A DNA stretch of 47,889 nucleotides from a virus. Where the stretch lies: positions 1-47,889 of IMG/VR virus record IMGVR_UViG_3300044295_000169; one strand, written 5' to 3'. Positions 6,717-45,724 of the stretch are shown one piece after another. The stretch's first letter is position 1. Each line of letters starts with the position of its first letter. The translations under genes were made by a program, and so were the position numbers. Under the pieces are notes generated by a model, which made no database searches, was not told the origin of the DNA, and saw only the letters and a program-made list of their open reading frames with translations.

Positions 6717-7483
6717 CACACATCTCTCAGTGAAAGTACAAGGTCTCGGATGTCGAACTTGTCGGGGATTACAGAGTGCTCAGACAATGTGATCTTTGAC
6801 CAGTCGAGGAACTTGAGGCTGTTGACTGAAGTACCAGTGCTCTTGAGTCGGCGAGCAACAGACTGTACTCCCTGACGACCAGCATCATCATTGTCGAACA
6901 GCAGGGTTACATCTTTGTCTCGCAGGACGTGCATGTAGTTACCGCTGAAGCCTGAGCCGCAGGTTCCCAGCAGGTCGATCTTTGAGTCCTTCAGCAAATG
7001 ACGCATGACCAGATAGTCTGCATGACCTTCGGCGATGTAGATTTCTGAGGAAGAGGTAAGTTGTGACAGACCGAGCACGCTGCAGGACCACGGCTTAGGA
7101 CTGGCATAAGCAATGTTGGTTTGGACACTGTACTTGTGCAGTGCTATGAGTTTCTCATTCTGATTCCAGACTGGGAACCAGTAATACTGACCGTCGTACC
7201 TAATACCTTCTGATAACATTATGCGAGAAGATACGCCCTTCTTCTTTCTAAGGAAAGGGAGAGCATGGCTCGGTGTCAACTTCGGCAGTTCACTGTAGAA
7301 CCTCTGCATCAGTGTCAGAGCATTGCCGGACTCATGGCACTTCCAGCACTGCCAGACGTTACCCTCAGCCTTGCTGATACTGCAGTTGTCTGAGCCGCAG
7401 TACAGACACTGAATCGTGTAGTCCTGTTTGTCGGCTTCGTCTTCGTATTCTATTTCAAGATGGTCAAAGAGTTTCATATTCAT
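6716..7483 (-). CDS. DNA primase (zinc-binding plus TOPRIM)
   Basis: A 255-aa TOPRIM primase that makes RNA primers for replication. The N-terminal zinc module has C26-x2-C29 and C46-x2-C49. The TOPRIM fold shows the catalytic glutamate in IYIAEGHAD (E152) and the acidic DND motif in LLFDNDDAGRQG (D197, D199). It is shorter than DnaG because the helicase-interacting C-terminal domain is missing; that job may fall to the neighbouring AAA+ protein. Start ATG 7483 overlaps the previous stop (ATGA). The DNA at 7042 carries one of the repeated TTTCTGAGGAAGAG motifs. Confidence 0.88.
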   Translation of the reverse strand: MNMKLFDHLEIEYEDEADKQDYTIQCLYCGSDNCSISKAEGNVWQCWKCHESGNALTLMQRFYSELPKLTPSHALPFLRKKKGVSSRIMLSEGIRYDGQYYWFPVWNQNEKLIALHKYSVQTNIAYASPKPWSCSVLGLSQLTSSSEIYIAEGHADYLVMRHLLKDSKIDLLGTCGSGFSGNYMHVLRDKDVTLLFDNDDAGRQGVQSVARRLKSTGTSVNSLKFLDWSKITLSEHSVIPDKFDIRDLVLSLRDV

Positions 7484-7734
7484 CGCTCTGCTTGTTGGAT
7501 CGTGAAAAAATTTATGTTTTCGACAAGGATAAATGTTTCTGGTGTTCCGTGCAGTCTTACAACACTGGAAGTATTGCGAAACAACCCGCGACGGTAAAAC
7601 TTGTTTATGGCCTCTGTCAAATTCTGTCGTACACTGTCTGGGTCTGTAGTCTCAATAGTAATCGTCATGCCCGCTTTTAGATAAATGGTACATTTGTAGT
7701 TGTTCGTCTTTTCCGTGGTTAATTGCTCACTCAT
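7480..7734 (-). CDS. small hypothetical protein between polymerase and primase
   Basis: An 84-aa protein of unknown function with AGAGGTGG as ribosome-binding site 3 nt before the ACT spacer of ATG 7734. It overlaps the primase gene by 4 nt and follows the polymerase gene after 21 bp, so it is co-transcribed with the replisome. Alternating charged and hydrophobic stretches suggest a compact alpha/beta fold (KCTIYLKAGMTITIETTD). It may be a replisome accessory factor; nothing in the sequence proves this. Confidence 0.65.
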   Translation of the reverse strand: MSEQLTTEKTNNYKCTIYLKAGMTITIETTDPDSVRQNLTEAINKFYRRGLFRNTSSVVRLHGTPETFILVENINFFTIQQAER

Positions 7735-7755: not shown

Positions 7756-9831
7756 TCATCTCCTGATCTTTACTGACTTGTTCCAACCATTTATCACCAG
7801 TTCTGGATCTACAGGGGCTTCTACCCCGTAGTCCAGTGCTGCACGCTCCATACAGTCTACCAGTCCCCAGACGTGCTTCTTCGGGAACTTAACAGGCATC
7901 TCGAATACCAGTTCGTCATGGCACTGCAATGCGACTCTTCCCGCAGGGTAGTTCTGGAGAAGATAATCGTAACAGTAACGCATGGCTCGTTTGACTATGA
8001 CACCCTCGGTTCCCTGTACGATGTAATTGACCCCGGCGTGGCCCTTGAACTCATCACGACCTGACCACTGATTGAATGCGATGTCCAGGTGCAGGGGATA
8101 ACCTGATCCGGTTGGTCCTGTACCCTCAGTACCACTTCGCCCTGCTGTGTAGACGATGCCAGTTTCCGCAATCTCTCGCTTCGTTTTTTCGATGAAAGCA
8201 TGGGCGTTCGGGAATAGTTTAAGGACTGTACCCCACAGCCCAGGGACACCCGCAGTCTGCTCGATCTTCTTCGGACTGGCACCGAAGATGAACCCGAAGT
8301 TGACGTTCTTTGCGATGCGTCGTTGAGCCTTGGAAGGAGAGTCACTATCTGAAATGCCAAAGATCCTACGGGCCGTGAAGTCATGTGCATCCCATCCACG
8401 TCTGAAAGCATCGATCATCTCCTGTTCGTTCGTGACAACAGCAAAGATACGCAACTGCAACTGAGAGTAGTCACAGTCTAACCACCAGTAGCCCGGAGGC
8501 GGACCAAACACGCTACGCATACTCGGACTGTGCTTGAGCCACTTCGCGATTTCTGGGTGGTCATCTTCATAGGGGTTCCCAGCTTTCTGCACCTGCTGCA
8601 GATTCGGATTGTTGCCTGACATGCGTGTTGTCTTCGTGCCAGTCACTTTGAATGACGGGTAGATAACACCACTGTCGGTACGGTTTTCTGAGTAGGAAGT
8701 CAGGTACTCCAGTTTCTTCGTGTACTTTCTGAGGGAAAGGAACTGGGCGAGGAACTTGTACTCAGGGCTGCCGGGCTGTGCTTCATCATGCAGACGTACC
8801 AGTGTCTCTGCATCGACTGAGGGTTCCTGCTTCTTCTTTGTTACTTTGACCTGACTCATGTTCCAGTTGTCATAGAACAGCCAGCGAAGGTCTGCGTCGT
8901 TGAACTCTTCGAGTCCGCTGATCTCCTTACAAGACTCTGTGAGTTGTTCAATCAGTCTCTCGCAGGACTCGATAGCACCCTGCAACTTAGCCTTATGGAC
9001 CCAGACACCAGTGTTTTCAATACCCCACATGACAGGCATGATCTGACGATTCACGTTCAGACATTCCATGACTTTCTCGCTCGGCTGAGACGTAAGCATG
9101 TGCGGGTCATGCTCCATCATCCGGGCTTGGGTATCATCCTGTACTCCAGCCATCAGGAAGCGTGCAAGATTATGGGTGTTAGTCACGTCTGCTTTGAGGT
9201 ACTTTGCGAGCACTCCACTGAGGAGAGTATCCGGGAGTTTCGGGCGAGCAGACGCCGGTATGCTTCGCAGAACTGCTCGGGGTAGCCAGTAGTCCAGTCG
9301 AGCGAATTCAGTAGATTTGCCACACCCTCGCATTCCGGGATGTCCGCTTTGGTATTCGGCAATGCTCCACTGTCTGTTTTCTGGGAGGGACTTGTTGTGC
9401 TTGCGGATGTGTCGTCTGCAGGCATTGACGGTATCGATAAGTTCACGTTCCTCTCCATACTTGTTGCCAAAGTATTTGAGTACAAGAGCATCGAGACCTT
9501 GACGGTCGATGTTGTTGAACAGGTGAGCGAGGTGCATTGTATCAAGCACCTTGTCCCAGAACTCAGGACAGTTTGGTTCTTCCCAATCGAGGATACCAGC
9601 CTCACACAGAGCCTTAACGTCAAACATGGCGTTATGGAACACCAGCATGTTTGCAGCAGAGACAACCACCTTGATGTTCTGTGAGAACTCACCGACACGT
9701 TTACGAGTCACGGGATCAACAGGTAACTCTTCTGCTCGGTAGGTACTGCCGTCGAACATTCCAATGGCAAAGACTGTGGACCAGCCAGCACGCAGATGAA
9801 GTCCTGTTGTTTCGGTGTCGATTACCAGCAT
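7756..9831 (-). CDS. polA: family A DNA polymerase with 3'-5' exonuclease
   Basis: A 691-aa replicative DNA polymerase. Exonuclease residues are intact: D5 and E7 in DTETTG, H66-N67...D71, and Y211-x3-D215. Polymerase motif A is DCDYSQLQLR (D454). Motif B has R504, K508 and F512 before GFIFG, so the nucleotide-selecting position is Phe, as in E. coli Pol I rather than the Tyr of T7. Motif C is QCHDELVF (H638, D639, E640). No 5'-nuclease domain is present. ATG 9831 has GAGGTGA upstream. With the primase and AAA+ genes it forms the replisome. Confidence 0.95.
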   Translation of the reverse strand: MLVIDTETTGLHLRAGWSTVFAIGMFDGSTYRAEELPVDPVTRKRVGEFSQNIKVVVSAANMLVFHNAMFDVKALCEAGILDWEEPNCPEFWDKVLDTMHLAHLFNNIDRQGLDALVLKYFGNKYGEERELIDTVNACRRHIRKHNKSLPENRQWSIAEYQSGHPGMRGCGKSTEFARLDYWLPRAVLRSIPASARPKLPDTLLSGVLAKYLKADVTNTHNLARFLMAGVQDDTQARMMEHDPHMLTSQPSEKVMECLNVNRQIMPVMWGIENTGVWVHKAKLQGAIESCERLIEQLTESCKEISGLEEFNDADLRWLFYDNWNMSQVKVTKKKQEPSVDAETLVRLHDEAQPGSPEYKFLAQFLSLRKYTKKLEYLTSYSENRTDSGVIYPSFKVTGTKTTRMSGNNPNLQQVQKAGNPYEDDHPEIAKWLKHSPSMRSVFGPPPGYWWLDCDYSQLQLRIFAVVTNEQEMIDAFRRGWDAHDFTARRIFGISDSDSPSKAQRRIAKNVNFGFIFGASPKKIEQTAGVPGLWGTVLKLFPNAHAFIEKTKREIAETGIVYTAGRSGTEGTGPTGSGYPLHLDIAFNQWSGRDEFKGHAGVNYIVQGTEGVIVKRAMRYCYDYLLQNYPAGRVALQCHDELVFEMPVKFPKKHVWGLVDCMERAALDYGVEAPVDPELVINGWNKSVKIRR

Positions 9832-9834
9832 ACG

Positions 9835-10632
9835 TCACCTCTTATTGTTCTTGTAGATGATTATCGCACAGCAAATCAACAGAAACACTATCCATGTTGC
9901 AGGCTCTGGTACTGCCTGAGAGAACACCCGTTGTCCGACGTAGCTGTCGGCACTTGTCAGCAATACCTCGCCGATCGTGAATGACGCTGGCGTCCCTGCT
10001 GGCGGCGACTGGTTAAACATTGTGAAACTGATCCATCCCGTGCCGCTGTACAGAGTGTCTATTTCATCGCCGTCGTACTGATCAGCATGACTGCTCCAAA
10101 CGAACGGCAGGTATATTGCAGAGTGCCCGATTGGAATTTGTGTGTCTGCTCGTAAGTACCCGGTACTGACCAATGATGCCACAGATCCTGTGAACCGATC
10201 GCCGTACAGTCCTGTTTGCAGGTATCCGTTTGAGTCAGCATAAAACTGCAGGCTCTGCTGCGTTGAGCCGCCGTATCGTTCAGTGTAGCCGCCAAACTCG
10301 ACACCGGGACCATCACCCCACGATGTTGCAGGTTGCCAGAAGTATAACCACCCGAGCGGCCTCCCTTTACCTGTCAGGTTGATGCCGACTTCATCCACCA
10401 ATCCGTAACTTTCGTGGTAGACAGTGGCATCAATGTAATCAATCTCGATGATCAGATCCCCATAAGCGTTCCTGTCGGCTAGCACCACAATGGTAATGAA
10501 CGCGATAATGCACATCCATTCCAGCAGCCCGAGTCCCCACGTATCACTGCCAAGCAACACCGCATGTATCATTCGCTCGTTCTGCCGCCGGAGTTCGCGG
10601 GGTGTCTTTGGATCTCGATAACGCCTGCCCAT
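9835..10632 (-). CDS. secreted PEP-CTERM-anchored surface protein
   Basis: A 265-aa exported protein with a C-terminal exosortase signal: VPEPAT at residues 241-246, a hydrophobic helix (WIVFLLICCAIIIY) and a basic end (KNNKR). The N-terminus has a basic tail then a membrane helix at about 34-52. That helix fits a prepilin-like pattern, with G33 followed by Glu at +5 (LGLLEWM). The middle 180 residues are beta-rich and unrecognised, like the jelly-roll domains of many host PEP-CTERM proteins. It sits between polymerase and the ssDNA-binding-like gene, an odd place for a surface protein. A hairpin precedes its start. It probably needs a host exosortase. Confidence 0.75.
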   Translation of the reverse strand: MGRRYRDPKTPRELRRQNERMIHAVLLGSDTWGLGLLEWMCIIAFITIVVLADRNAYGDLIIEIDYIDATVYHESYGLVDEVGINLTGKGRPLGWLYFWQPATSWGDGPGVEFGGYTERYGGSTQQSLQFYADSNGYLQTGLYGDRFTGSVASLVSTGYLRADTQIPIGHSAIYLPFVWSSHADQYDGDEIDTLYSGTGWISFTMFNQSPPAGTPASFTIGEVLLTSADSYVGQRVFSQAVPEPATWIVFLLICCAIIIYKNNKR

Positions 10633-10653
10633 AATGCAACATCTCCAGAAGAA

Positions 10654-10685
10654 GACAGCCGTGTAGATTGCTCCACACGGCTGTC
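10654..10685 (-). other. perfect 11-bp hairpin between genes
   Basis: GACAGCCGTGT (10654..10664) and ACACGGCTGTC (10675..10685) form a perfect stem with a 10-nt loop, 22 bp before the PEP-CTERM start. On the transcript the downstream side is UCUUCU rather than a U tract, so it could attenuate transcription or limit translation of the surface-protein gene. The stem resembles 2177..2198. Confidence 0.6.
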
Positions 10686-10710
10686 AGACGGGGGTGGAAC
10701 CAACTGACGA

Positions 10711-11571
10711 TCAAGGCAGAGTCACAGACAGGTACGGTACAGTCAGAGACTTACCCGCCCTTTCGATTGTCAGAGTCTGCTTCTTGTCGTCAGCGGCTGT
10801 AACCTTGTAGGTCAGAGCCTTGGGAGACTTCGGGGCCTGGTACTGGACTTCGTAGTCCACCCAGTCAGACGGGGAGTAGTCTGCATGAACAGGTGTATCC
10901 TGCTCTGTCTCAGGCTCTCCAGAATCGTCTGTAACGCTGTCGAGGTCTTCCCCGGTAGGATCGTCCAATTCCGCATTCCATTCGTCTCCTGCAGGCTCTG
11001 GAGCGGCTTTAACGACGTTTTTGGGAGTCCGCTTCGTTGCGGGCTTGGCCGGAGCAGGTTCAACAGCCGGTTCAGGTTCTGAGGTGGGATCTTCATCGCC
11101 CCAGTTCATGCCGAGAATGTTGTAGTACCGCTTGTTCGGGTCATTCTTGCCCGGAACCACACGCATCTTGAACTGCTGATTGATGCAGCCTTTCAGGGCC
11201 GTGTCGATCTCAGGGATCTCCAGTTCCGCCGTATCGATGGACATACGCTGCAGGTCACGCATCAGGTTTTCGAGACACTGCTCAGGAGTGCGGCGATCGT
11301 CGCCTGACAGATTGTGCAGCACGTTCATGCTGGCCCCATTGTGAGGTGCCTGATGGGGCACGCTGCCGTCACACTTGAACTGCAGAATGAAATACTGGGC
11401 ACCGTCTTTCAGCACAACCTTCGGACCAACAAACGTCACAACGTATTCGCCCGGAGGTCCGGCAAAGTCCCGGACAGCCTGAGCTTTCTTCGCGACCGCG
11501 GCGTGCTTTGCAAGAGCCTTGTTCTGCTTCAGCAGAGCAGCCAGCCCGAGGTTCTGAGTATTGTCAACCAT
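10711..11571 (-). CDS. ssDNA-binding-like replication/recombination protein
   Basis: A 286-aa protein I place, tentatively, in the group of phage ssDNA-binding or recombination accessory proteins. Residues 40-155 are a beta-rich core (EYVVTFVGPKVVLKDGAQYFILQFK..., then KRYYNILGMNWG). A Pro/Ala/Lys linker and an acidic stretch rich in Asp and Glu (residues 195-230) follow, and the last 45 residues resemble a second small beta domain. An acidic tail is typical of ssDNA-binding proteins. The recombination genes upstream support the role. The family assignment is inferred, not motif-proven. Confidence 0.55.
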   Translation of the reverse strand: MVDNTQNLGLAALLKQNKALAKHAAVAKKAQAVRDFAGPPGEYVVTFVGPKVVLKDGAQYFILQFKCDGSVPHQAPHNGASMNVLHNLSGDDRRTPEQCLENLMRDLQRMSIDTAELEIPEIDTALKGCINQQFKMRVVPGKNDPNKRYYNILGMNWGDEDPTSEPEPAVEPAPAKPATKRTPKNVVKAAPEPAGDEWNAELDDPTGEDLDSVTDDSGEPETEQDTPVHADYSPSDWVDYEVQYQAPKSPKALTYKVTAADDKKQTLTIERAGKSLTVPYLSVTLP

Positions 11572-11619
11572 TGGAACACCTTTCTGAACTTGAAATGAAA
11601 CGGACAGTTGTGAGAGTTA

Positions 11620-12531
11620 TCAAGCGATGCCGAGCACGCCCTGCAGAACCTTGTAGGTTTCTGAGGGAGAAGTACCGCAGTCCAGTTCTTCGGACTCGCC
11701 GCACCAGGACTTTGCGATGTAGTAGGTATTCGGTGCCACGCCGATGAATCGACGATCTCCGACTGCCTTACGCTTCTTGGTCTTTTCGTCATTCAGTACG
11801 CTGACTGTGCGACCGAGGTACACGATTGCGTGAACATCTTTTTTCGTGTAGTTGAAGATGCCTTTCGTCAACTGCGGCTGATACTGATCGTAATCAGGAC
11901 CGACAGGGTTGGCGACCGTCTTGGTTGTGCTGTGACTGATCAGCACGATGTTGAGACCTTTCGCGACGATCTCCAGACACAGAGGCATGAAGATTCCGGA
12001 CCAGAACACTTCAGCAGCTTTGCTGTAACCTCGCTGGAAGTCGTTGAAGTCCTTGCTGGTCATGTCGCCGTTGAACAGGACTGAGGCACAGTGCTGGAAA
12101 CAGATGTCCTGCAAGCCGCTCGTGCTATCAATCACCAGTGTCTTGTACTGGTGTTTGCTGTCACGGAAGCGAGTCATTGCGGACATCAGTTTCTTCCAGC
12201 CGGGGTGCCCAGTACCTCGCGGAATGCTGTTCTGGTCGAACAGAGGATCGAGGTCAATCACCTGCACAGATGGAGGGATTGCTCTACGCTGTTTGTGAAT
12301 GTGGACACCCTGCTCGCCACTGGTCGCAATGAACAGAGGTGCGGGGAACTGTGCGGCGAGAGTTGTCTTCCCCTCACCAGCTTCTGAGTAGAGAAGAATG
12401 AATCGACCGTGAGTTGGGGACTCATCGATCAAGTCATCAAACGGATTCTCACCTGCTCGCAGTCGTGGCGTAGCAGGCGGTGCAGCGGGACTCGCTGGCT
12501 TTGTTGGACGTGGTGCAGGTCGAACACTCAT
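11620..12531 (-). CDS. Sak4-like RecA-fold ATPase
   Basis: A 303-aa P-loop ATPase of the short RecA/Sak4 type used by phages for single-strand annealing or exchange. Walker A is SEAGEGKTT (residues 49-57) and Walker B is TLVIDSTSG near residue 135. The RecA-like core continues with a strand LNIVLISHS near residue 205. The first 30 residues are a Pro/Ala-rich tail. The neighbours (nuclease, resolvase-like protein, ssDNA-binding-like protein) make up a recombination cassette. Overlap with the upstream nuclease gene is 4 nt, so the two are translationally coupled. Confidence 0.8.
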   Translation of the reverse strand: MSVRPAPRPTKPASPAAPPATPRLRAGENPFDDLIDESPTHGRFILLYSEAGEGKTTLAAQFPAPLFIATSGEQGVHIHKQRRAIPPSVQVIDLDPLFDQNSIPRGTGHPGWKKLMSAMTRFRDSKHQYKTLVIDSTSGLQDICFQHCASVLFNGDMTSKDFNDFQRGYSKAAEVFWSGIFMPLCLEIVAKGLNIVLISHSTTKTVANPVGPDYDQYQPQLTKGIFNYTKKDVHAIVYLGRTVSVLNDEKTKKRKAVGDRRFIGVAPNTYYIAKSWCGESEELDCGTSPSETYKVLQGVLGIA

Positions 12532-15408: not shown

Positions 15409-16194
15409 TCAGAATTTCTCCGATTCATAGGATTTGGTTTCTTGACGGGTTTTCATCATGTCCCTTAGAGCCTTGCCCCGGATAGCAGCATTCGGGTTGA
15501 CTTCGCCGTCCAAAGTCATTGTGACTCGCCCACACCAGTTGCGACCGTCCTGTCCGAGATGCAGTACCTCGAAGGGTGGTCTCAGCTTTTCTGCGGGGGA
15601 CCATTTCTGCTGGAAGAATGAGTCACCGCCGCCTGCATGTTTCCAGTTTGTCTGGTGCCACGGTGCAGGGCCAAGGTGCCAGTCAGAGCCGTGGAATATC
15701 TGGGTGTAACCAGCCCATTCGACTTGCTGGCGATGCAGTGGAAACTGTTTCCAGTAAGGTTCCTGGGGAAGATGATCGGGTACATCGACCATCATGCGGC
15801 GAAGCGGGGTGTACAGGAATCCCGGACGCATCTGCATTGCAAGAGGTTTAGATGCGTCGAATGTATATCCCGTGCGGTCAGGAATTGCGAAAGACCAGTC
15901 GATAAACTGCGGCCAACAGATATCAGCATCCATGATGCAGATCCAGCCGTCACGCCCAACACGGTCGAAGGTTTCCTCCAATGCGAGGTACTTGTTGAAG
16001 TACGCTCCATTCAAGTAGAACGCATCGGTGTAATGACAGTGTACCTCGTTCTTCTCGCAGACGTAGGGTGTCTGTCGGTCCTTGCGAGTCGTGATGACGT
16101 GGATCTCAGAGAAGTGATGTTTGTTGACAGGCAGAGTTCTGGAAAGGAAATCAGCATACTCTACACACACGATGAACGCTTTTAACGGGGTCAT
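15409..16194 (-). CDS. GT-A-fold glycosyltransferase-like protein
   Basis: A 261-aa protein with the GT-A signature: a beta-alpha N-terminus (KAFIVCVEYADFL), then WICIMDADICWP with the metal-binding DAD at 89-91. The C-terminal third carries an H-rich block (GSDWHLGPAPWHQTNW) and LHLGQDGRNWCGR, typical of GT-A acceptor regions. It would transfer a nucleotide-sugar unit to a phage or host acceptor in the cytoplasm; the acceptor is unknown. The start lies 1 nt after the radical SAM stop, so the genes are coupled. Confidence 0.68.
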   Translation of the reverse strand: MTPLKAFIVCVEYADFLSRTLPVNKHHFSEIHVITTRKDRQTPYVCEKNEVHCHYTDAFYLNGAYFNKYLALEETFDRVGRDGWICIMDADICWPQFIDWSFAIPDRTGYTFDASKPLAMQMRPGFLYTPLRRMMVDVPDHLPQEPYWKQFPLHRQQVEWAGYTQIFHGSDWHLGPAPWHQTNWKHAGGGDSFFQQKWSPAEKLRPPFEVLHLGQDGRNWCGRVTMTLDGEVNPNAAIRGKALRDMMKTRQETKSYESEKF

Positions 16195-16195
16195 G

Positions 16196-17128
16196 TCAGG
16201 TTCCTAAATACTTAATGACAGGACGGTCGGTTGAATGGACTTCTTCTTCAGTGCTCAGAATTTGCAGGAGTCCATTTTTCATTTGCAGGTGGCTGTACTG
16301 CTGGGTTACATGAGTTACATTGTCGTGCTGGGCATGAGAGCCGTGACCCTTGAGGGGCACTAAACAGTTGTGACAGTGCTGGCGAACCTGCGGAGCAAAC
16401 TCTGTCATTGACTTCTTCCACCATGCAGTACCGAAGTCGTCATTTGCTACGATCGGGATGCCGGTGTCAGGATACTCTGGATCGTGCTGATTGAGGATAG
16501 CTTGACTGCCTGCAATCTCGCAGAAGAACCCACGCACCTGACCACGGAACTCACAAATCATTGCAGACCAATGTTGATTGATATCGCACTGGCTGATCAA
16601 TTCCCATCGACGTTCCTCGGGGATACCGAGGTCGATCATAGAGCCGTGAACCGGGGAGTGTCGGCTGTCTGTCTGATTACCAAACGGCTTTGACTCTGGC
16701 CACGATGCCTTGAACTCATCGTAGGCTGCTTGGTTCAGGTGACAGTTCAGGTTGCTCATGTTCGGGTTGAATGTCTCCCGCATGATGCTACCTTTACCGC
16801 GAGGATTGTTACACCAGATACCGCACTGCTCCTTCGGGAAGTAGTTTCTGAGGATGGAACAGATGTCGGCGAATTGCGGGTGTAATGCAGGGTTGCCTCC
16901 GAAGATCCCGATCAGTCCCCAGTAGCCTCTCATTGACTTCAGGGCAATCTCAAAGTTCTCCAGTGACATGAACGTGGACTTGCCACGGAACTGACTGCCT
17001 TGCGTGCAGTTACTGCAAGCGAGGTCGCAGGCTCGTGTCAGGTGGATCTGCATGACCCCTTCACGAAACTTGCCCGGTCGCCGTTGGTTGGGGGCTACCA
17101 TTCGAGACAGACATTCTTGCTCTTGCAT
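16196..17128 (-). CDS. radical SAM enzyme
   Basis: A 310-aa radical SAM protein. The iron-sulfur motif is C34-x3-C38-x2-C41 (CDLACSNC), preceded by MQIHLTRA. FGGNPALHP at 76-84 is the SAM-binding GGE-like block, with Asn in place of the usual Glu. Later cysteines (CDINQHW, MICEF, FFCEI, CHNC) suggest an auxiliary SPASM-like cluster. I chose ATG 17128; a start at 17053 would avoid the 68-nt overlap with the upstream gene. It lies between glycosyltransferase genes, so modifying sugars, peptides or nucleobases is plausible. Substrate unknown. Confidence 0.8.
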   Translation of the reverse strand: MQEQECLSRMVAPNQRRPGKFREGVMQIHLTRACDLACSNCTQGSQFRGKSTFMSLENFEIALKSMRGYWGLIGIFGGNPALHPQFADICSILRNYFPKEQCGIWCNNPRGKGSIMRETFNPNMSNLNCHLNQAAYDEFKASWPESKPFGNQTDSRHSPVHGSMIDLGIPEERRWELISQCDINQHWSAMICEFRGQVRGFFCEIAGSQAILNQHDPEYPDTGIPIVANDDFGTAWWKKSMTEFAPQVRQHCHNCLVPLKGHGSHAQHDNVTHVTQQYSHLQMKNGLLQILSTEEEVHSTDRPVIKYLGT

Positions 17129-18167
17129 TGTACTCGATCCTTTTATCTTCGAGAGCATTGGCGAGGTGGGTACTGACAGTAACGTAGTTGTACCGAAACT
17201 GAGCTTTGAAAGCGAAGTCATGCTGACGTTCAAGGTCGTAGTTTGCGACTGCTTCTTCAAGCGTACATCGCAGCAGGTTCATGTTGATGTCAGGATGGAC
17301 TCGAATCAGATTACCGTCGATCTCTGGTAGAACTTCATCGGTCGGTAGGTCTGTAACCACCTGACAGCCTGCAGCAGTAGCCTCAATGATCTTTCTGAGG
17401 GCGTAACCGTACCGACTGCTGGTGCATACTGCGACCTTGAAGTTTGACAGGAACTGCATGTAGTCTGGCGTGCAGCAGCCTTTACGATGGTAGCCCGGAT
17501 GGTTGAGCCACGTCATACCCAGTTTGGTCTGGAACTGACGCATACGCTGTCTGAGAGGATATGCCGCAGACACTGCTCCAGACATCACTACCTTGTCTCG
17601 GTACTTGTTCCATTCTGGAACGTGATCAAGGTCGAGACTGTGGTAAGTCCGAATCAGATCCTGCTCACGGACGTAAGGTGCAATACGCTTTACGATCCTC
17701 GGGTGGTAGTACACGATCCATGCGTGGCAGGCCATGTCGATAGCAGCCTGACGATGGTACAGAGGATTCTGGTGAGCATCCTTCAGGATAGTGACGTTCA
17801 GACTGTTGTGATACTGCAGGGCCTGAATGTTCTCGAAGCGGGCTTCTGGCTCTCTGAAGTTTCCCGGCTGAACATCCCATTCGCGAATGTCCTGCACGAC
17901 AACGACACTGGGGTTTGTGTGCTCGATGATCTTGCGGACATTTGTTTGTGGGTAGTCAAGGTTGTACCCGCAGTGTCTGTAGCCTTGGCACGCCAGACCG
18001 TTAGTGATTTGCCAACCTTCATCGGTCATGTGTCGTTTCATCGACTCGACACCGAGCACGACTCTTTCAGCACTGCTGTTCGGCGTGAATGCAGGTCTTG
18101 GCAGTTCCTGACAAGTCTGCGTAGGCTTCAGTTGGTTCAATGTCTCTTGGACCGTGCGGGGGTGCAT
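17061..18167 (-). CDS. GT-B-type glycosyltransferase
   Basis: A 368-aa protein resembling GT4-like transferases. The C-terminal half has the nucleotide-sugar block YALRKIIEATAAGCQVV followed by PTDEVLPEIDGNLIRV, the usual place of the conserved E-x7-E pair. A Rossmann-like strand is near residue 88 (NPSVVVVQDIREW). ATG 18167 has GAGG 7 nt upstream. The 3' end overlaps the radical SAM gene by 68 nt. The repeated genome motif at 17392 falls in this nucleotide-sugar block. Confidence 0.68.
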   Translation of the reverse strand: MHPRTVQETLNQLKPTQTCQELPRPAFTPNSSAERVVLGVESMKRHMTDEGWQITNGLACQGYRHCGYNLDYPQTNVRKIIEHTNPSVVVVQDIREWDVQPGNFREPEARFENIQALQYHNSLNVTILKDAHQNPLYHRQAAIDMACHAWIVYYHPRIVKRIAPYVREQDLIRTYHSLDLDHVPEWNKYRDKVVMSGAVSAAYPLRQRMRQFQTKLGMTWLNHPGYHRKGCCTPDYMQFLSNFKVAVCTSSRYGYALRKIIEATAAGCQVVTDLPTDEVLPEIDGNLIRVHPDINMNLLRCTLEEAVANYDLERQHDFAFKAQFRYNYVTVSTHLANALEDKRIEYNARARMSVSNGSPQPTATGQVS

Positions 18168-18175
18168 GGCTATCC

Positions 18176-19516
18176 TCAGAGTAGGGTTAGGGCATCGAAA
18201 TCTTCTCCCGGAAATGTCAAAGCCTGGGGATGTCTTCGGTTTCCCATTGAAGACTTTTCCCCTGTGTGCTGAAGCAGACTGGGAGCGTGAACGTATTCAG
18301 TATAGCCAGACTGGTTCATGGATTCAACTACAGCCCCGTCAAGCGAGTGGTGGCCCCTTTGAGAATCCATACGTCGAGTGATCATGTGAGGGCATGACAG
18401 CAAGGCTATGCAGGCATCGTGAGGGAAGATCAAACCGACAGCACCTCGGCCTAACTGGTGGCTGCGGGTATTGTCTGGAGCGATAGCATAGGCTGCCTCA
18501 ACCCAGCCCTTGCGGTCCTTCACAACCTGTTCGTTCTCCATGAACGTGAACAGATTGAAGTACGCTTTGTCTGGTTTGTTGCATCGCTCGAAGTACGCTT
18601 TCAGATTCTTGACGGCTATGAAGTCATCCTGAAAAATCGCGTAGTATTCTGCCCACGGATCTCTGTTGTAGAGTTCCAGCAGGGTCAGGTGCCAGTGACT
18701 GAACGTGCGGATGTTGGCCCCTCTGAAATGAACGCGACTGTAATTGCATACGTCACCGTAGTTGACCCACGGACCATCGACGAACAGTTCTGGATCAGGG
18801 AAGCCTGCATCAAACAGACTGTTCATTGTTGGCTGTAAGGTTGTTTCGAATCGAGATTGAACCGTAGTCACAGCGTACTGCCAACGGCCTTTGACATAAG
18901 GTACATCAGTCTGTGGACGGTCGTGTCCCTTGTTCCACTGATTTACCAGTCTGGTTAATACGTCTTCGTGTCCGGGATCGCAGAGAACCCTGCGATGACT
19001 GGATGGTGTCGGTCTGAGTCCGAAGTACAGGGACTTGACTTGAGGCTTAGCCCACGCTTCAAACTCTTTGACCTCGCCGTCATGGACACAACCGCAGACG
19101 TATCGAGATGCAGGCACCACAACAGTAGGTTGCTCGAACGGTGCGGGTTCCTGCTTTCCTGACAGTATTGAGGATGCCCAGTCTCCCAGACGGTTCAACT
19201 TCTGTACTCGCTCATCACAGTTACAGGGAGCACCGAGCCATCCGCTGACTCTTTCCTCTGTAATGCCAACTGAAGACAGAGCCTGCTTTATTCTGTCTCC
19301 GAGTCCGGGTGACTCCCGGTAAGTTTCTGAGGAAGAGACTGTACCGCCATACTCCTGAATGATCAGGCGGAGTTGATGCAGGTCGTCTCCAGTTGCGGTG
19401 GTGACAATACGGCGAGACCCATCAGCAGATCGACTGCCGAGGGTTGCCATTGGATTATCACACACGAACTGTTGAGCAAGAATCTCAGGGAGTTTGCCGA
19501 GGGGGGTGGCAGCCAT
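18176..19516 (-). CDS. two-domain glycosyltransferase
   Basis: A 446-aa protein. The N-terminal ~150 residues hold a small domain with CNCDERVQKLNRLG, a C-x-C pattern I have seen fused to glycosyltransferases in phages. The C-terminal ~250 residues are GT-A-like: IFQDDFIAVKN carries the acidic pair, and HAPSLLQHTGEKSSMGN is the usual end block. ATG 19516 has AAGGG 8 nt upstream; a TTG at 19531 is possible but less likely. It opens the modification cluster directly after a cysteine-rich virion gene. Confidence 0.65.
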   Translation of the reverse strand: MAATPLGKLPEILAQQFVCDNPMATLGSRSADGSRRIVTTATGDDLHQLRLIIQEYGGTVSSSETYRESPGLGDRIKQALSSVGITEERVSGWLGAPCNCDERVQKLNRLGDWASSILSGKQEPAPFEQPTVVVPASRYVCGCVHDGEVKEFEAWAKPQVKSLYFGLRPTPSSHRRVLCDPGHEDVLTRLVNQWNKGHDRPQTDVPYVKGRWQYAVTTVQSRFETTLQPTMNSLFDAGFPDPELFVDGPWVNYGDVCNYSRVHFRGANIRTFSHWHLTLLELYNRDPWAEYYAIFQDDFIAVKNLKAYFERCNKPDKAYFNLFTFMENEQVVKDRKGWVEAAYAIAPDNTRSHQLGRGAVGLIFPHDACIALLSCPHMITRRMDSQRGHHSLDGAVVESMNQSGYTEYVHAPSLLQHTGEKSSMGNRRHPQALTFPGEDFDALTLL

Positions 19517-19517
19517 T

Positions 19518-20312
19518 TTATAGCCCTTCAATAGTCATGTCGTAGTATGGTAAAAATTGGTCTCTTGGAATGTACCTTAGACCTCCATTGCTTACTACTT
19601 TTCTCCAAGGAAAGTATGAGCCACCTTTGCATACCTTATATCTTAGAGACGTCGGTATGGAGCCAAAATAGCCGAAGTCCCACTCCTCACTTTCTAGCTG
19701 TCCTGTACTCCAGTTTATAGTTTTTCTAAATAATCTGAAATAGTTTCCGTAATTTGTTTGATTTCCATTCCAGTCAAGTGTCCAGTGGGGGTATCGCGAA
19801 TCTGTTTCGCAAGTATCGCCTACAGGCTGGTATCTTGGTGCCCTCTCTTTGCTGTCCCAGTAGGGACTGCATCTTCCTTCAGGCCGGGCGTATAAATAGT
19901 ATGTTCCTGCAAACGGGCACCCACCTGCTGGCGGTTGGAATATAGGATTCGTAGTAACCGTCAGTTTCCATATTTTCGTATATGTATCAGCCCATATCCC
20001 TGTGTATCCAGGGTAAGTGTCCGTGTAGTCGCCGTACAGAGTTTGACAAGTGCAAACTTTCTCACTGTTATCGCCGATGAATCGACACGCATCCGGTTGT
20101 GTAGGATTTCCTACAATGAGCGGTGGGGCTTTGACTTTTACGCAATTTCCGTCTGAGTATTTAGGCTTAACACATACAGGACATCCCTCAGTGTCGCCAA
20201 CTGGGTAAAATGTGTTGTTGCATCTCGGCCTGAAATCTTCAGCCGCTACTTTCCAAGTTCTGCACATTACAGGACCGGAAGGGTTTCCGGGTTCTACTAC
20301 TGTCGTTGTCAT
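19518..20312 (-). CDS. cysteine-rich hypothetical virion protein
   Basis: A 264-aa protein with about 13 cysteines, many in pairs (CPVC, CTC, CRF, CPF, CKGG), plus many Tyr, Trp and Gly. This suggests a disulfide- or zinc-stabilised beta fold. I do not recognise a family. It overlaps the upstream tail gene by 4 nt (ATGA) and precedes the glycosyltransferase cluster. It reads more AT-rich than its neighbours, which hints at separate origin. A tail-tip or decoration role is inferred from position only. Confidence 0.55.
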   Translation of the reverse strand: MTTTVVEPGNPSGPVMCRTWKVAAEDFRPRCNNTFYPVGDTEGCPVCVKPKYSDGNCVKVKAPPLIVGNPTQPDACRFIGDNSEKVCTCQTLYGDYTDTYPGYTGIWADTYTKIWKLTVTTNPIFQPPAGGCPFAGTYYLYARPEGRCSPYWDSKERAPRYQPVGDTCETDSRYPHWTLDWNGNQTNYGNYFRLFRKTINWSTGQLESEEWDFGYFGSIPTSLRYKVCKGGSYFPWRKVVSNGGLRYIPRDQFLPYYDMTIEGL

Positions 20313-31780: not shown

Positions 31781-33569
31781 CCAACACCTCCGGGCATTTC
31801 TGGGAAGAGATCCAAGTAGCAATCAGGTTGTTGACATCCACGTCATCGATCAGATCGGTCCAGACACTCAACTGTTCGTTAAGCATCTGACTGAAGCGAC
31901 TGTCGGCTGCGTAGAACTCTGCGACGGCAGCATCATAGTCGTTAGGTCGAGTAGACTTCTTCTGGTCCAATACTCGCGACTCGTACTGCTTTAGCCCGTT
32001 GATGACATTATTGAAAGCAACTCTCACGGCATTATTAGCCTTGCGAAGTCGCTTGTCAATGTTGTCCTTGCTCGGGCTGTTGTCCATATCTTTCTGTGTG
32101 GTTGCACCGGGGGCTTCAGGTGTAGCCACGGGCTTGACCATGCCGTCGTTCATCTTACGCTGTCCGTCTTTCTGCAGATCGAGCATCTCCAGATTCGACT
32201 CAGCGGTCTTGTTGGATATCTCAGCCTGCTCCTGAAGCAGCAGGGAGTGCTCTACGGTCATCAGATTGACAGGGACGTACCTCGGGTCAGCCGCAGCATC
32301 GGAGGGGTTGATATACAACCCCAGCAACTGACGGGCCTCAATACGATTGATGACTCCGATCTCGAACAGCTTACGCAGCGAGTCAGAGAATCTGTCAATC
32401 ACGTTGCGGTACAGGTACATCTTCTCAAACTCGAACCTGTACAGCATCTGTGATGGAAGCGGCAGTAACTCAGTCTTGAACTGAGCAGAGAGCCTGTCGA
32501 GGAATGGGCCGATACCAGTCTGTACAAACAGACTGATCACGCCAGACAGATCGACATCGCCAGCCTTGGTACCCATGTAACTGTGCAGGAGTACCGGAGG
32601 GATGTTGAATCCTCGGGCCACGTCTTCGACACTGAATGCACGAGTCTCGATGAACTGCAGATGCTGGAACGGAATACCCATGTGGACTGGCTTCAGTCCC
32701 TGCTCCAGAATACGAGTCTTGAAGATCGACTCCAGCGGAGCGTTAGGGTCTTCCTCGAAGTTGGCTTCCAGACGCTTCAGGACTTCAGGGGCCAGCCTGT
32801 TGTCTGTAGTCAGGAACATTTGGTTAGCGATACCACGAGTGTAGAAGTTCCGACCGAACTGTTCACTCGCGGAATACAGGTCCACAGTCATCTGGGAGTT
32901 GCCAATGAATCCTTCACCTCGGAAGTAATCGGCATCCAGCACTGAGGATTTGAAGTGACACATAGCCTCTTTGGGCAGGTACAGAGGCTGTGTGTCTTTG
33001 TCTCGGTATGTTGCACCCGTGTCAATGCGGTACAGGATCTCGCCAGCCACTGCACGGCGAGGGGGAGATGTATCAAGCATCTCATCACCGCGAGCACGCT
33101 TGATGTTCATCCTCGGAATTCTGGAGGGATGCACATAGTACAGGCGGGATGTCCGGCCCTGCATGTCCAGTTCACGGATGAAGTAGCAGTTCCCGTCCAT
33201 CAGTACGTCGTAGATGATGTTCAAGAGAGCATCATCCGCACTGAGTTCTGGGTTGAAGTAGTGCTGGAACAGTCTTGATGCTGGATGGCTCGTAGTCTCG
33301 ATGATACGAGTAGACTGCTGAGTCATCTGGTCCACAGCATACATACGACGGGGCAGTGCGACAGCCATCCCGGTATAGACCTGAACGGCACATCGCACTG
33401 CAGACAGACGCAGGGCCACGTCTGTCCTGTCTGCAAACATCTGTTCATGACGGATCGTACCCCACAAGTTTGCCCACGACATTGTGGCCGCATTCATGGC
33501 GTAGTCAATCAACGTGCCTATTGCGGCATGGGGGCGGGCAGCAACAGGTTTCTTGAACAGATTGAGCAT
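31761..33569 (-). CDS. portal protein
   Basis: A 602-aa portal protein forming the dodecameric gate at one capsid vertex. The HK97-type pattern is seen: RFAVRCAVQVYTGMAVA-like N-terminal helix, GRTSRLYYVHPSRI, EGFIGNSQMT near residue 219, and a C-terminal helix-rich tail after residue 450 with many Lys, Glu and Gln. It overlaps the terminase stop by 1 nt (ATG 33569) and the protease start by 20 nt, as expected in a packed head operon. Confidence 0.88.
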   Translation of the reverse strand: MLNLFKKPVAARPHAAIGTLIDYAMNAATMSWANLWGTIRHEQMFADRTDVALRLSAVRCAVQVYTGMAVALPRRMYAVDQMTQQSTRIIETTSHPASRLFQHYFNPELSADDALLNIIYDVLMDGNCYFIRELDMQGRTSRLYYVHPSRIPRMNIKRARGDEMLDTSPPRRAVAGEILYRIDTGATYRDKDTQPLYLPKEAMCHFKSSVLDADYFRGEGFIGNSQMTVDLYSASEQFGRNFYTRGIANQMFLTTDNRLAPEVLKRLEANFEEDPNAPLESIFKTRILEQGLKPVHMGIPFQHLQFIETRAFSVEDVARGFNIPPVLLHSYMGTKAGDVDLSGVISLFVQTGIGPFLDRLSAQFKTELLPLPSQMLYRFEFEKMYLYRNVIDRFSDSLRKLFEIGVINRIEARQLLGLYINPSDAAADPRYVPVNLMTVEHSLLLQEQAEISNKTAESNLEMLDLQKDGQRKMNDGMVKPVATPEAPGATTQKDMDNSPSKDNIDKRLRKANNAVRVAFNNVINGLKQYESRVLDQKKSTRPNDYDAAVAEFYAADSRFSQMLNEQLSVWTDLIDDVDVNNLIATWISSQKCPEVLDVGSES

Positions 33570-36556
33570 TATTTCAAACCCCGGATATCGGTGATTGTCT
33601 CTATCTCAGGATACAGCGACCCGCCCAGAGCCATCAAAGAGGCAACTATACCGTCGATCTTGTTTGTTGATTTTTGCTTGTCAGGACGCCTTTGTCCATC
33701 ATGATTTGTCATGATCGTTACATTTCCGGCTTCCCACTCCAGTACCGGGTTGCCCCCGTGATACAGACACTTATCGATTGCCATAGACTCCAGTTTGCGG
33801 ACAGGCTCGTTCATACCGGGGAAGTTTTGCGGATATGCTCGGGCTGGGTATCCGAAGTCTTTCAATCGAACATAGATCACACGCATCGCAAAACGGTCGA
33901 AGCAAATCTCACGAAGACCCTCAAAATGAGTGAAGATGCCAGGATACGATGCGTCTCCCAGCATAGTCTTGACAATGGATTCATCGTCTGTCGTTTCAAG
34001 TGGTGCAGTGGAGTTGAGTAACCCCGCTTCCCACCAACGAGCGTAAGGTAGTCCCTGTTCTTGTGACCTTCGGTATATGGATGCTGCCGGGCACCAGTGC
34101 CATGTGAGCAGCGTTTGTTTGGTAGGGAACCACAGCGATAACGCTGCAAGGTCTTGAACGATTGAGTTGTCGAACCCTGCATAGCATTCCTCGTATCGAA
34201 GTTCTTCACACTTGGCTATAAACCATGACCAGTACAATCCTTGGTTAGCAATCTGAACATCAACTGAGGTTGTGTCGAAGTTCCGATCGCAAGCGATGTT
34301 GTTCCAGTATGGGTGTTCTGACATCCAGTTCTTGATATCAACGACTGACATCATCTCGACTGAATCAGGATCAGGATTACCATTTGCCCAAACGTGCGGA
34401 GGAATCCAGGCTGTCTCAGTCTTTGTTTTGATGTTCAGGTGCAGTCGCAGGAACCTGTTGAGTTCTGCAGGGTTGTCCTGTACTGACCTTACCATTTCCT
34501 CAAAGTATTCTCTGGTGATCGACTTCCCGTAGTTCGGGTTGGCTCGACTCCAGATTGTCGGGTTACGGAAGTCATCAGTTACATTGGCTTCGTAGATTAC
34601 TGGGAGGAAGGTAGGTGCCCACTGCTTCCCTGAAGCAATCATCTTGGCCTTGCTGTACATCTCATTGCAGACACTGGGACGGTCATAGTCTGCTGTGGTT
34701 GTGTAAACGATCAGAGGCTGCCTGCGAGCCGCAGTACCAGTCTTCATCACGTCTACGAGTTCACTGTTCGGATGAGCGTGTACTTCGTCAACGTACACAA
34801 AGTTAGGGCTGAGTCCGTGTTTCGTGTCGGCCACACTGGACAACACTTTGAAGCTGGCACCGTCTGTATGCTCGAATGACTTGGTTGATCTGTAGACTCG
34901 TTTCTCCTTGAGTCTGCTGATCAACCGGGGGTTGTTCTCGATCATGTACTGGCTGTGCCTGAAGTTCACAGTCGCCTGATCACTGTCAGCAGCACAACAG
35001 AAATTCTGACTACGCTTCTCACTGTCCACGAAGAACATTATGAGAGTAATGATTGCTCCGAAAGCAGTCGTGTTGTGTGTTGTCAGGTATTGCTCTCCAA
35101 ACAGGTATGTGCCGGAAGGAGCATCGACTTGGATGCAAACCATCTCGGTAGGTGTCGTAGGTTCAATGCTGACAATGTGGTTGCTTTTACTCCTTCCTCT
35201 GGAGGTTTTCATCCTGTTCAGTTTTCTGGGAAGAGTGAACACTGGATGTTCATCTCGACCAGCAGCAAACTGAATTTGATAGTACGAGTTTGTTTGTCCA
35301 GTCTGACAAGTCTTGCGTATAGAATTCAAAGTTGCTTTGAGGCCGAGCGAGTAGCACAATCGAAAAATACCGTCTGCCAGCGTCTTGTTTTTCTGAGAGA
35401 TAGAGATGTCTGTTCCACGCAGGCTGATGAAGCCATCGGTATCCATCAACCCTTGAAGCAACCTCAGTCTCTGGTTTCTTGATGCGGTAAAGTATTCCTC
35501 GGGAATGTGCTTGTTGTTCTTCAAATTTGTGTCGTATAACTTTGATCCAGCAATCTCAGGCAGGGTAACAGTCCAGCAAGTCTTTCGACGTATTTTCTTG
35601 TAGCCCTTCCAGTGATCGATATCCTCATCTCCTACTGACAAGTATGGACCAGCAGAACTTCCATCTCCGAGCCAGGCACCGAGGATGTAAGGGTCTATCG
35701 GTAGATTTGCTTCTTCACATTCAATTCCAGAGTGCATCGGGATACTGAATGTCTTTCCGTTTCCGCAGTCTACGCCAGTATCGAACAGTTGCTGTGTTGT
35801 CCATACATCTTCATAGGTGCTTTCACTTGTTTTGTTGGAGACAGTTTTGACGCCTGCTTTTCTGTTTACCTTGGCAGTCTTGTTGTTTTTGTCTGGGTGT
35901 TGCTTTCTTGAGATCACATGCCACTGATGGTCAGCACCAGCCAAAGCTACTTGACCGCTGGAGAAAATAACCTTGTATGCTTTCTCAGGAACTCTTCTGT
36001 CAGCAACAAAAACGACGCTACAAGGCTTACCGTCTTTGTCAAAGACAGTGTCTCCAACTTTCAAGTCTCCGATAGTTGTAAAGCCGCTTGGTGTTGGTAT
36101 CAACGTGCCAACGTCAAGTTCTTTACCGTTCTTCCTGGGCACATATATGAAGCATTCTCTGTACCGCCGTAAGCCTGTCTCGACAGACTTCCAACAGAAC
36201 AAGTTTGCGTATATGGCCGACTGCCAAAGTTCTGGGATGAAAGATTGACCCGTCAGTTCACCTTCAGGATAGACACACTCGTTCACAATGAATGCGATGA
36301 TTCGATCCCATTCAGTCGCGTCGAAGTAGTATCCCTCTGCTGAAGCAAACGGGTCATAATCAGGCAACATCTTTAGCAGGCTGACTGGAGATCGTTCAGT
36401 CCACTTCCAACCAATCATCCGGCCCCTCTCAAAGATCGTGTCAGGAACACGAATCTTCTTTGGTCCGGCTTTCAGTTTTCCAGTGGGCTGCCCGTCTTTA
36501 ATCTCCTGCTGCTTGATGAAACTCTGATATGCAGGTAACTCAAGTTCGATGGTCAT
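33569..36556 (-). CDS. terminase large subunit interrupted by an intein
   Basis: A 995-aa precursor. Without its 350-residue intein the packaging motor is 645 aa, a normal Terminase_1-type size. The ATPase Walker A reads VPRKNGK then TTAFGA, split by the intein between Lys145 and Thr496. The nuclease half is intact: GFDNSIVQDLAALSLW and CFDRFAM give the metal-binding acids, and HGGNPVLEW with STNKIDGIVASLMALGG closes the domain. Processing must excise the intein for the Walker A lysine to sit beside TT. The gene heads the structural run. Confidence 0.93.
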   Translation of the reverse strand: MTIELELPAYQSFIKQQEIKDGQPTGKLKAGPKKIRVPDTIFERGRMIGWKWTERSPVSLLKMLPDYDPFASAEGYYFDATEWDRIIAFIVNECVYPEGELTGQSFIPELWQSAIYANLFCWKSVETGLRRYRECFIYVPRKNGKELDVGTLIPTPSGFTTIGDLKVGDTVFDKDGKPCSVVFVADRRVPEKAYKVIFSSGQVALAGADHQWHVISRKQHPDKNNKTAKVNRKAGVKTVSNKTSESTYEDVWTTQQLFDTGVDCGNGKTFSIPMHSGIECEEANLPIDPYILGAWLGDGSSAGPYLSVGDEDIDHWKGYKKIRRKTCWTVTLPEIAGSKLYDTNLKNNKHIPEEYFTASRNQRLRLLQGLMDTDGFISLRGTDISISQKNKTLADGIFRLCYSLGLKATLNSIRKTCQTGQTNSYYQIQFAAGRDEHPVFTLPRKLNRMKTSRGRSKSNHIVSIEPTTPTEMVCIQVDAPSGTYLFGEQYLTTHNTTAFGAIITLIMFFVDSEKRSQNFCCAADSDQATVNFRHSQYMIENNPRLISRLKEKRVYRSTKSFEHTDGASFKVLSSVADTKHGLSPNFVYVDEVHAHPNSELVDVMKTGTAARRQPLIVYTTTADYDRPSVCNEMYSKAKMIASGKQWAPTFLPVIYEANVTDDFRNPTIWSRANPNYGKSITREYFEEMVRSVQDNPAELNRFLRLHLNIKTKTETAWIPPHVWANGNPDPDSVEMMSVVDIKNWMSEHPYWNNIACDRNFDTTSVDVQIANQGLYWSWFIAKCEELRYEECYAGFDNSIVQDLAALSLWFPTKQTLLTWHWCPAASIYRRSQEQGLPYARWWEAGLLNSTAPLETTDDESIVKTMLGDASYPGIFTHFEGLREICFDRFAMRVIYVRLKDFGYPARAYPQNFPGMNEPVRKLESMAIDKCLYHGGNPVLEWEAGNVTIMTNHDGQRRPDKQKSTNKIDGIVASLMALGGSLYPEIETITDIRGLK
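35072..36121 (-). mobile_element. class 3-like intein with LAGLIDADG homing endonuclease
   Basis: The intein is 350 residues, ELDVG...LTTHN, followed by the +1 residue Thr. Position 1 is Glu, not Cys or Ser. The Trp-Cys-Thr triad of class 3 inteins is present: W67 in DHQWHV (with H65), C329 in EMVCIQVD, and T348 before H349-N350. The endonuclease motifs are PYILGAWLGDGS (D153) and LLQGLMDTDGF (D229). It sits in the Walker A motif, so it can spread by cutting intein-less terminase genes. Confidence 0.85.
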
Positions 36557-45497: not shown

Positions 45498-45724
45498 CTG
45501 AGCAGAACGAACACTGGGTTGAGCATTGGCAGCATCGGTGTGATGAGTTGCAGGAGAAACTGGACAGACTGCAGGCAATCATTCAGCGACTGCAGACCCT
45601 GCAACCATCAGAGGTTACGCCGGAGGAACTGCAGGCGGTCAACGACGAACTGCCGGAGATGCTGATTAGTAGGCGTTACATCGCGGCAGTCTGCCGTGGG
45701 ATGCTGAAGGGAGGTGAACAATGA
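45494..45724 (+). CDS. coiled-coil hypothetical protein
   Basis: A 76-aa protein. Residues 9-45 form a heptad coiled coil (HWQHRCDELQEKLDRLQAII), and the C-terminal helix ends near the thyX start. ATG 45494 has GGGAGGG upstream; the longer frame from 45461 reads through the previous gene. It overlaps thyX by 4 nt. Function unknown. Confidence 0.55.
   Translation: MTEQNEHWVEHWQHRCDELQEKLDRLQAIIQRLQTLQPSEVTPEELQAVNDELPEMLISRRYIAAVCRGMLKGGEQ

What the first reader, a model, noticed from the sequence alone, without database searches (positions are those of the whole stretch)
9835..10632. Phage-encoded PEP-CTERM surface protein
PEP-CTERM tails are host exosortase substrates and rarely appear in phages. 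The gene lies inside the replisome cluster, has a membrane helix with a prepilin-like Glu5 at its N-terminus, and a hairpin precedes its start. A phage protein displayed on the host surface could block superinfection or alter adhesion. Its function is unknown.
Basis: partly seen in the sequence, partly recalled or inferred. Interest (0 to 1): 0.82.

Follow-up and report, generated by a model that had tools for sequence, protein, structure and literature searches.

The report
Phage cargo gene with surface-sorting tail
An uncultured phage carries, in a spot among its DNA-copying genes where relatives carry other cargo or nothing, an orphan gene whose protein ends in the tag bacteria use to send proteins to their surface, so the phage may be borrowing the host's sorting enzyme to change the surface of the infected cell.

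Summary
The gene is real and where stated (9835-10632, minus strand, 265 aa). It has a transmembrane segment near each end, and its last 25 residues (VPEPATWIVFLLICCAIIIYKNNKR) match the PEP-CTERM model TIGR02595 end to end: 18.2 bits in the genome search (cut-off 16), 15.4 in hmmscan, so borderline. The passenger has no detectable relative in viral contigs, bacterial genomes, plasmids or phage records.

The main new result is the gene's location. In the phage's relatives the gap between the SSB-like gene and the DNA polymerase is an exchangeable cargo slot. The two nearest relatives have a DNA methyltransferase there, with clean breakpoints. Seventeen others have nothing. The rest have HNH endonucleases, a tRNA-Gln, or small ORFs. 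Only the window has the PEP-CTERM gene.

The hairpin terminates the upstream SSB-like gene and is also present in relatives without this gene. The Glu5 prepilin motif has no support from profiles. PEP-CTERM proteins also occur in unrelated viral contigs, one beside terminase and portal genes.

Surface display by a host exosortase is the most likely mechanism, but it is inferred. The host is unknown, the phage encodes no recognisable exosortase, and superinfection exclusion is untested.

The parts
9835..10632 (-). PEP-CTERM-tailed orphan gene, 265 aa
   Evidence: ORF; coding frame has the best codon score of the six frames; TIGR02595 match
9838..9912 (-). PEP-CTERM tail, aa 241-265: VPEP, hydrophobic helix, basic end YKNNKR
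   Evidence: TIGR02595 1-24/24, 18.2 bits, over the cut-off of 16; helix 244-264 in the model
10477..10533 (-). N-terminal transmembrane segment, aa 34-52, after an Arg-rich cytoplasmic leader (aa 1-33: 8 basic, 4 acidic); likely signal anchor or signal peptide
   Evidence: hydropathy and charges; single-sequence model has a helix at 11-57
9838..10640 (-). exchanged cassette: the segment that differs completely from the nearest relative; backbone is shared up to 10641 and again from 9837
   Evidence: blastn breakpoints; methyltransferase in the same slot of L001 and L160
10654..10685 (-). terminator-like hairpin after the SSB-like gene; part of the shared backbone, not of this gene
7756..9831 (-). 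DNA polymerase (PolA type with exonuclease part), downstream neighbour; 3 nt after the stop codon. Codons AAG AGG TGA at the end of the cargo gene look like its ribosome-binding site
   Evidence: phrog_17 E 1.9e-85; sequence
10711..11571 (-). upstream neighbour, ssDNA-binding-like by position; no family match
   Evidence: no PHROG or Pfam match; conserved next to the Sak4-like gene and pol in the relatives
11620..12531 (-). Sak4-like recombinase
   Evidence: phrog_124 E 6.6e-25

Best explanation
The gene is accessory cargo that occupies, in place of another cargo gene, a variable slot between the SSB-like gene and the DNA polymerase. Shown: the slot, its turnover in relatives, the clean exchange, the two membrane segments and the PEP-CTERM tail. 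Inferred: the gene is expressed with the polymerase during infection (it has no promoter-like site of its own). The protein goes through Sec with its Arg-rich N-terminus inside, and its acidic, beta-rich passenger crosses to the periplasm. The VPEP helix holds it in the inner membrane. A host exosortase then cuts at the PEP motif and passes the passenger to the outer surface or to the exopolysaccharide. The most likely benefit is to change the infected cell's surface, for example by masking receptors or by promoting aggregation.
For: Full-length TIGR02595 match over the cut-off in the expected tripartite form defined by Haft et al. 2006 (PMC1569441). 29 of 200,000 shuffles and 0 of 2,175 family frames match the pattern. 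Charge pattern: leader 8 basic to 4 acidic, passenger 7 basic to 21 acidic, basic C-terminus. An orphan passenger is typical of PEP-CTERM proteins, fewer than 10% of which matched a Pfam family. The slot holds a methyltransferase in L001 and L160, HNH genes in four relatives, tRNA-Gln in two, small ORFs in three, and is empty in 17. No promoter-like site was found between 9600 and 11700. PEP-CTERM proteins occur in other viral contigs.
Against: The PEP-CTERM score is borderline: 15.4 against 16 in hmmscan and 11.7 against 20.7 in Pfam. The host is unknown, so an exosortase is not shown; the phage itself has no recognisable one. The N-terminus is long and Arg-rich before its hydrophobic part and may not be cut like a normal signal peptide. 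There are no homologues, so selection on the tail cannot be tested. Function on the surface is untested.
Confidence: 0.5

Rival explanations
1. Ordinary two-ended inner-membrane protein: both hydrophobic segments anchor it and the passenger stays in the periplasm. VPEP is coincidence, or a relic of a host gene that no sorting enzyme reads. It could act as a superinfection-exclusion or envelope-stress protein without reaching the surface.
For: Borderline PEP-CTERM scores; strong first hydrophobic segment with no clear peptidase site; no exosortase shown for the host. Small ORFs with hydrophobic stretches fill the same slot in L134 and L154.
Against: The motif, helix and basic end are all present in order and close to the C-terminus, rare by shuffling, and the match covers all 24 model positions.
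Confidence: 0.32
2. Prepilin-like protein processed at Gly33 by a prepilin peptidase.
For: Gly33 and Glu38 are spaced as in type IV prepilins and a hydrophobic stretch follows.
Against: No prepilin model in Pfam or NCBIfam at E up to 10; the leader ends in ...GSDTWG with an acidic residue and no basic stretch at the cut; pilins do not normally carry a C-terminal membrane helix.
Confidence: 0.04
3. Lysis accessory (spanin-like or holin-like) protein.
For: A membrane segment at each end and a periplasmic middle.
Against: No lipobox for a one-piece spanin; too large for a typical holin; located in the replication module; present in one phage of the family only.
Confidence: 0.05
4. Open frame that is not expressed, or decayed cargo.
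For: No homologue anywhere, so no comparative proof of coding.
Against: 282-codon open frame, best codon score of six frames and phage-like GC3, ribosome-binding site in place, stop codon fitted to the polymerase start.
Confidence: 0.05

Closest known systems
PEP-CTERM/exosortase (EpsH) protein sorting, TIGR02595 / PF07589
   Same: C-terminal PEP motif, hydrophobic helix and basic end; N-terminal export segment; orphan passenger
   Different: Carried by a phage; single copy; Arg-rich 33-residue leader instead of a short signal peptide; tail ends in YKNNKR rather than an Arg run; no exosortase in the record
PEP-CTERM proteins in other viral contigs (L115 in a terminase/portal/head cluster; L054 next to RecT; L060 with a matrixin-like part; L050 between HNH genes)
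   Same: Same kind of tail inside phage-like gene neighbourhoods
   Different: Unrelated passengers and phages; different places in the genome
Phage accessory genes (morons) and homing-endonuclease insertion sites
   Same: Single gene fitted neatly between conserved genes; HNH genes use the same slot in relatives; presence varies between close relatives
   Different: Seems to rely on its neighbours' transcription and carries no promoter-like site of its own, unlike classic morons; no function shown

Membership tests
PEP-CTERM protein (TIGR02595) | Near-invariant Pro-Glu-Pro at the start of a 24-residue C-terminal region | tested here: met
   VPEP at aa 241-244; model positions 1-24; 18.2 bits over cut-off 16, but 15.4 and below Pfam's cut-off
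PEP-CTERM protein (TIGR02595) | Hydrophobic helix after PEP, then a basic end at the C-terminus | tested here: met
   aa 247-260 hydrophobic, end YKNNKR with three basic residues; helix 244-264 in the model
PEP-CTERM protein (TIGR02595) | N-terminal signal peptide | tested here: inconclusive
   Hydrophobic segment aa 34-52 with possible cleavage sites (VLA|D, AYG|D) but a long leader; no signal-peptide predictor available
PEP-CTERM protein (TIGR02595) | No other membrane segment between signal and tail | tested here: met
   Only two hydrophobic segments over threshold
PEP-CTERM protein (TIGR02595) | Exosortase in the same cell | not testable with these tools
   Host unknown; the phage and five relatives encode none (PF09721)
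Type IV prepilin | Match to a prepilin N-methylation model | tested here: not met
   Absent from Pfam and NCBIfam results at E up to 10
Type IV prepilin | Basic leader ending in Gly, Glu at +5, hydrophobic stretch | tested here: inconclusive
   Gly33 and Glu38 present, leader end is GSDTWG
Phage accessory cargo gene (moron-like) | Present or absent between otherwise conserved neighbours in close relatives | tested here: met
   Absent from 27 related loci with the slot intact plus L160; clean breakpoints
Phage accessory cargo gene (moron-like) | Own promoter and terminator | tested here: not met
   No promoter-like site in 9600-11700; the only terminator-like site is upstream and belongs to the backbone

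The most novel reading that the evidence does not exclude
Phages of exosortase-bearing bacteria carry exchangeable cargo that uses the host's exosortase to display phage-made proteins on the infected cell, a protein-sorting route that I did not find described for phages in the held literature.
Probability: 0.4. Interest if true: 0.65.

Novelty: new variant of a known kind. Interest (0 to 1): 0.42.

Why it matters
If true, phages use the exosortase pathway to remodel the surface of cells they infect. That would give a testable function to PEP-CTERM proteins found in other viral contigs, and would hint that such phages infect Gram-negative, exopolysaccharide-producing bacteria. The variable slot next to the polymerase is itself useful: it marks a place where this uncultured phage family keeps exchangeable accessory genes.

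Tried and rejected
Homologue searches with the whole protein in viral contigs, genome contigs, phage records, plasmids and the Protein Data Bank gave nothing usable. A single-sequence structure prediction was poor (mean pLDDT 40.7), so no fold search was run. Host identification failed: the only hit of the polymerase profile in 84,980 genomes was a 29% identical stretch in a Nitrospirota MAG contig, and the capsid and portal proteins have only distant named relatives with mixed hosts. Rfam found nothing around the gene. Comparison with the other viral PEP-CTERM proteins showed only weak similarity around the tail. Papers with PEP-CTERM or exosortase and phage or virus gave no description of a phage-encoded PEP-CTERM protein. 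The nearest was a TIGR03118 (putative exosortase-interaction domain) group among horizontally acquired genes in hot-spring viruses (PMC11003980), which I did not examine further. A dockerin-like look of the L115 protein was not confirmed by Pfam and is not claimed.

Full report
What was checked. The ORF at 9835-10632 on the minus strand encodes 265 aa and starts at an ATG with a ribosome-binding site (GGAG, 10643-10646). The intended frame has the best codon score of the six and GC3 of 0.586, within the range of the other genes. The window is an IMG/VR virus record of 47,889 bases.

The PEP-CTERM tail. The C-terminus AVPEPATWIVFLLICCAIIIYKNNKR matches all 24 positions of TIGR02595: 15.4 bits in hmmscan (cut-off 16, E 0.025 against 18,950 models) and 18.2 bits in the search of the whole record. 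Pfam's PF07589 gives 11.7 bits, below its cut-off. So the match is borderline by score but complete in form. Shuffling the last 45 residues recreated the three-part pattern in 29 of 200,000 trials, and none of 2,175 frames from related phages had it. Of 16 virus records searched with TIGR02595, 14 belong to related phages and none of those matched; only the window and the unrelated L115 record did. The tripartite definition, the usual signal peptide and the usual lack of homology of the passenger come from Haft et al. 2006 (PMC1569441).

Topology. There are two hydrophobic segments, aa 34-52 and aa 241-260. The first 33 residues hold 8 basic and 4 acidic residues, the passenger 7 basic and 21 acidic, and the last six residues three basic ones. 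By the positive-inside rule both ends are inside and the passenger is outside (inference). The passenger is beta-rich in a low-confidence model. The Gly33/Glu38 spacing exists, but no prepilin model was reported and the sequence before the supposed cut (GSDTWG) is not typical.

The slot. The polymerase profile brought 29 related loci (L127-L155; the contigs of L001-L005 are among them) in viral contigs. The window and 27 of these have the SSB-like gene and the polymerase start intact. Seventeen relatives have only 64-125 bp between them. The others carry an N6/N4 DNA methyltransferase (L127 = L001), HNH endonucleases (L136, L138, L139, L155), tRNA-Gln (L141, L153), a tRNA-like gene plus a 68-aa ORF (L154), a 76-aa hydrophobic ORF (L134) or a 67-aa ORF (L130). 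L136 was the HNH gene checked by profile; the others were read by similarity of sequence. Several of these contigs are near-identical, so the counts are not independent events. L133 keeps a 15-codon stretch (VPYNKHRRLIWKHVK) that looks like the end of an HNH gene, as if one had been lost. A second close relative, L160, found by its hairpin sequence, also has the methyltransferase.

The exchange. Window and L001 align at 94-95% next to the slot. Shared sequence runs to 10641, just after the ribosome-binding site, and resumes at 9837, the first base of the stop codon TGA; everything between differs. The methyltransferase is not elsewhere in the window. The last codons of the cargo gene (AAG AGG TGA) sit where the polymerase's ribosome-binding site is expected. 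This is a gene-for-gene replacement that preserves the polymerase's translation signals. Which of the two genes was there first is not known.

The hairpin. The structure at 10654-10685 (14 pairs, z -5.2) follows the SSB-like gene. It is identical in L001 and L160 and replaced by a different stem followed by a T-rich stretch in most other relatives, empty or filled. It is the terminator-like element of the upstream gene or a leader of the polymerase message, not part of the cargo gene. No promoter-like site was found between 9600 and 11700, so the gene is probably expressed with its neighbours (inference).

How unusual it is. Some contigs may contain host DNA. L115 is a clear phage case: its PEP-CTERM protein (19.9 bits, over the cut-off) lies among terminase, portal and head genes. 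L054 (overlapping a RecT-like gene), L060 (matrixin-like part, near an endolysin-like gene) and L050 (between HNH genes) are likely further cases. So phages do carry PEP-CTERM proteins repeatedly. No description of this was found in the held papers, which is not proof that none exists.

Mechanism and limits. The supported part is a cargo gene in a hotspot, encoding an exported, C-terminally anchored protein with a PEP-CTERM tail. The step from there to surface display needs an exosortase in the host, which is unknown; the phage encodes none that PF09721 recognises. The benefit (receptor masking, aggregation, superinfection exclusion) is inference. Full-chain confidence is 0.5, with a plain inner-membrane anchor as the main rival at 0.32.

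Noticed in passing
window 7480-7734 (-): An 84-aa ORF with low GC (0.41) lies between pol and the primase gene in the window; in L001 the two neighbours are almost contiguous. The other side of pol also seems to accept cargo.
   Followed up: partly
window 33569-36556 (-): The terminase large subunit is 995 aa, with terminase matches on both sides of an insertion at about residues 142-503 that looks like an intein.
   Followed up: no
window 15409-19531 (-): A cluster with a radical SAM gene (PF04055) and proteins that look like glycosyltransferases but match no Pfam family.
   Followed up: no
window 45721-46536 (+): ThyX-type thymidylate synthase (PF02511), one of the few plus-strand genes.
   Followed up: no
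L060:6973-7713 (-): A viral contig encodes a protein with an N-terminal hydrophobic segment, a HEIGHAFGIAH zinc-protease motif and a PEP-CTERM tail.
   Followed up: partly
L138 1826-2000, L154 5533-5673: Similar tRNA-like sequences follow the SSB-like gene; ARAGORN and Rfam call a tRNA only in L154 (four-base anticodon gacg).
   Followed up: partly
L133:5957-6004 (+): Fifteen codons resembling the C-terminus of the HNH genes of L136, L138 and L155 remain before pol, as if an HNH gene had been deleted.
   Followed up: partly
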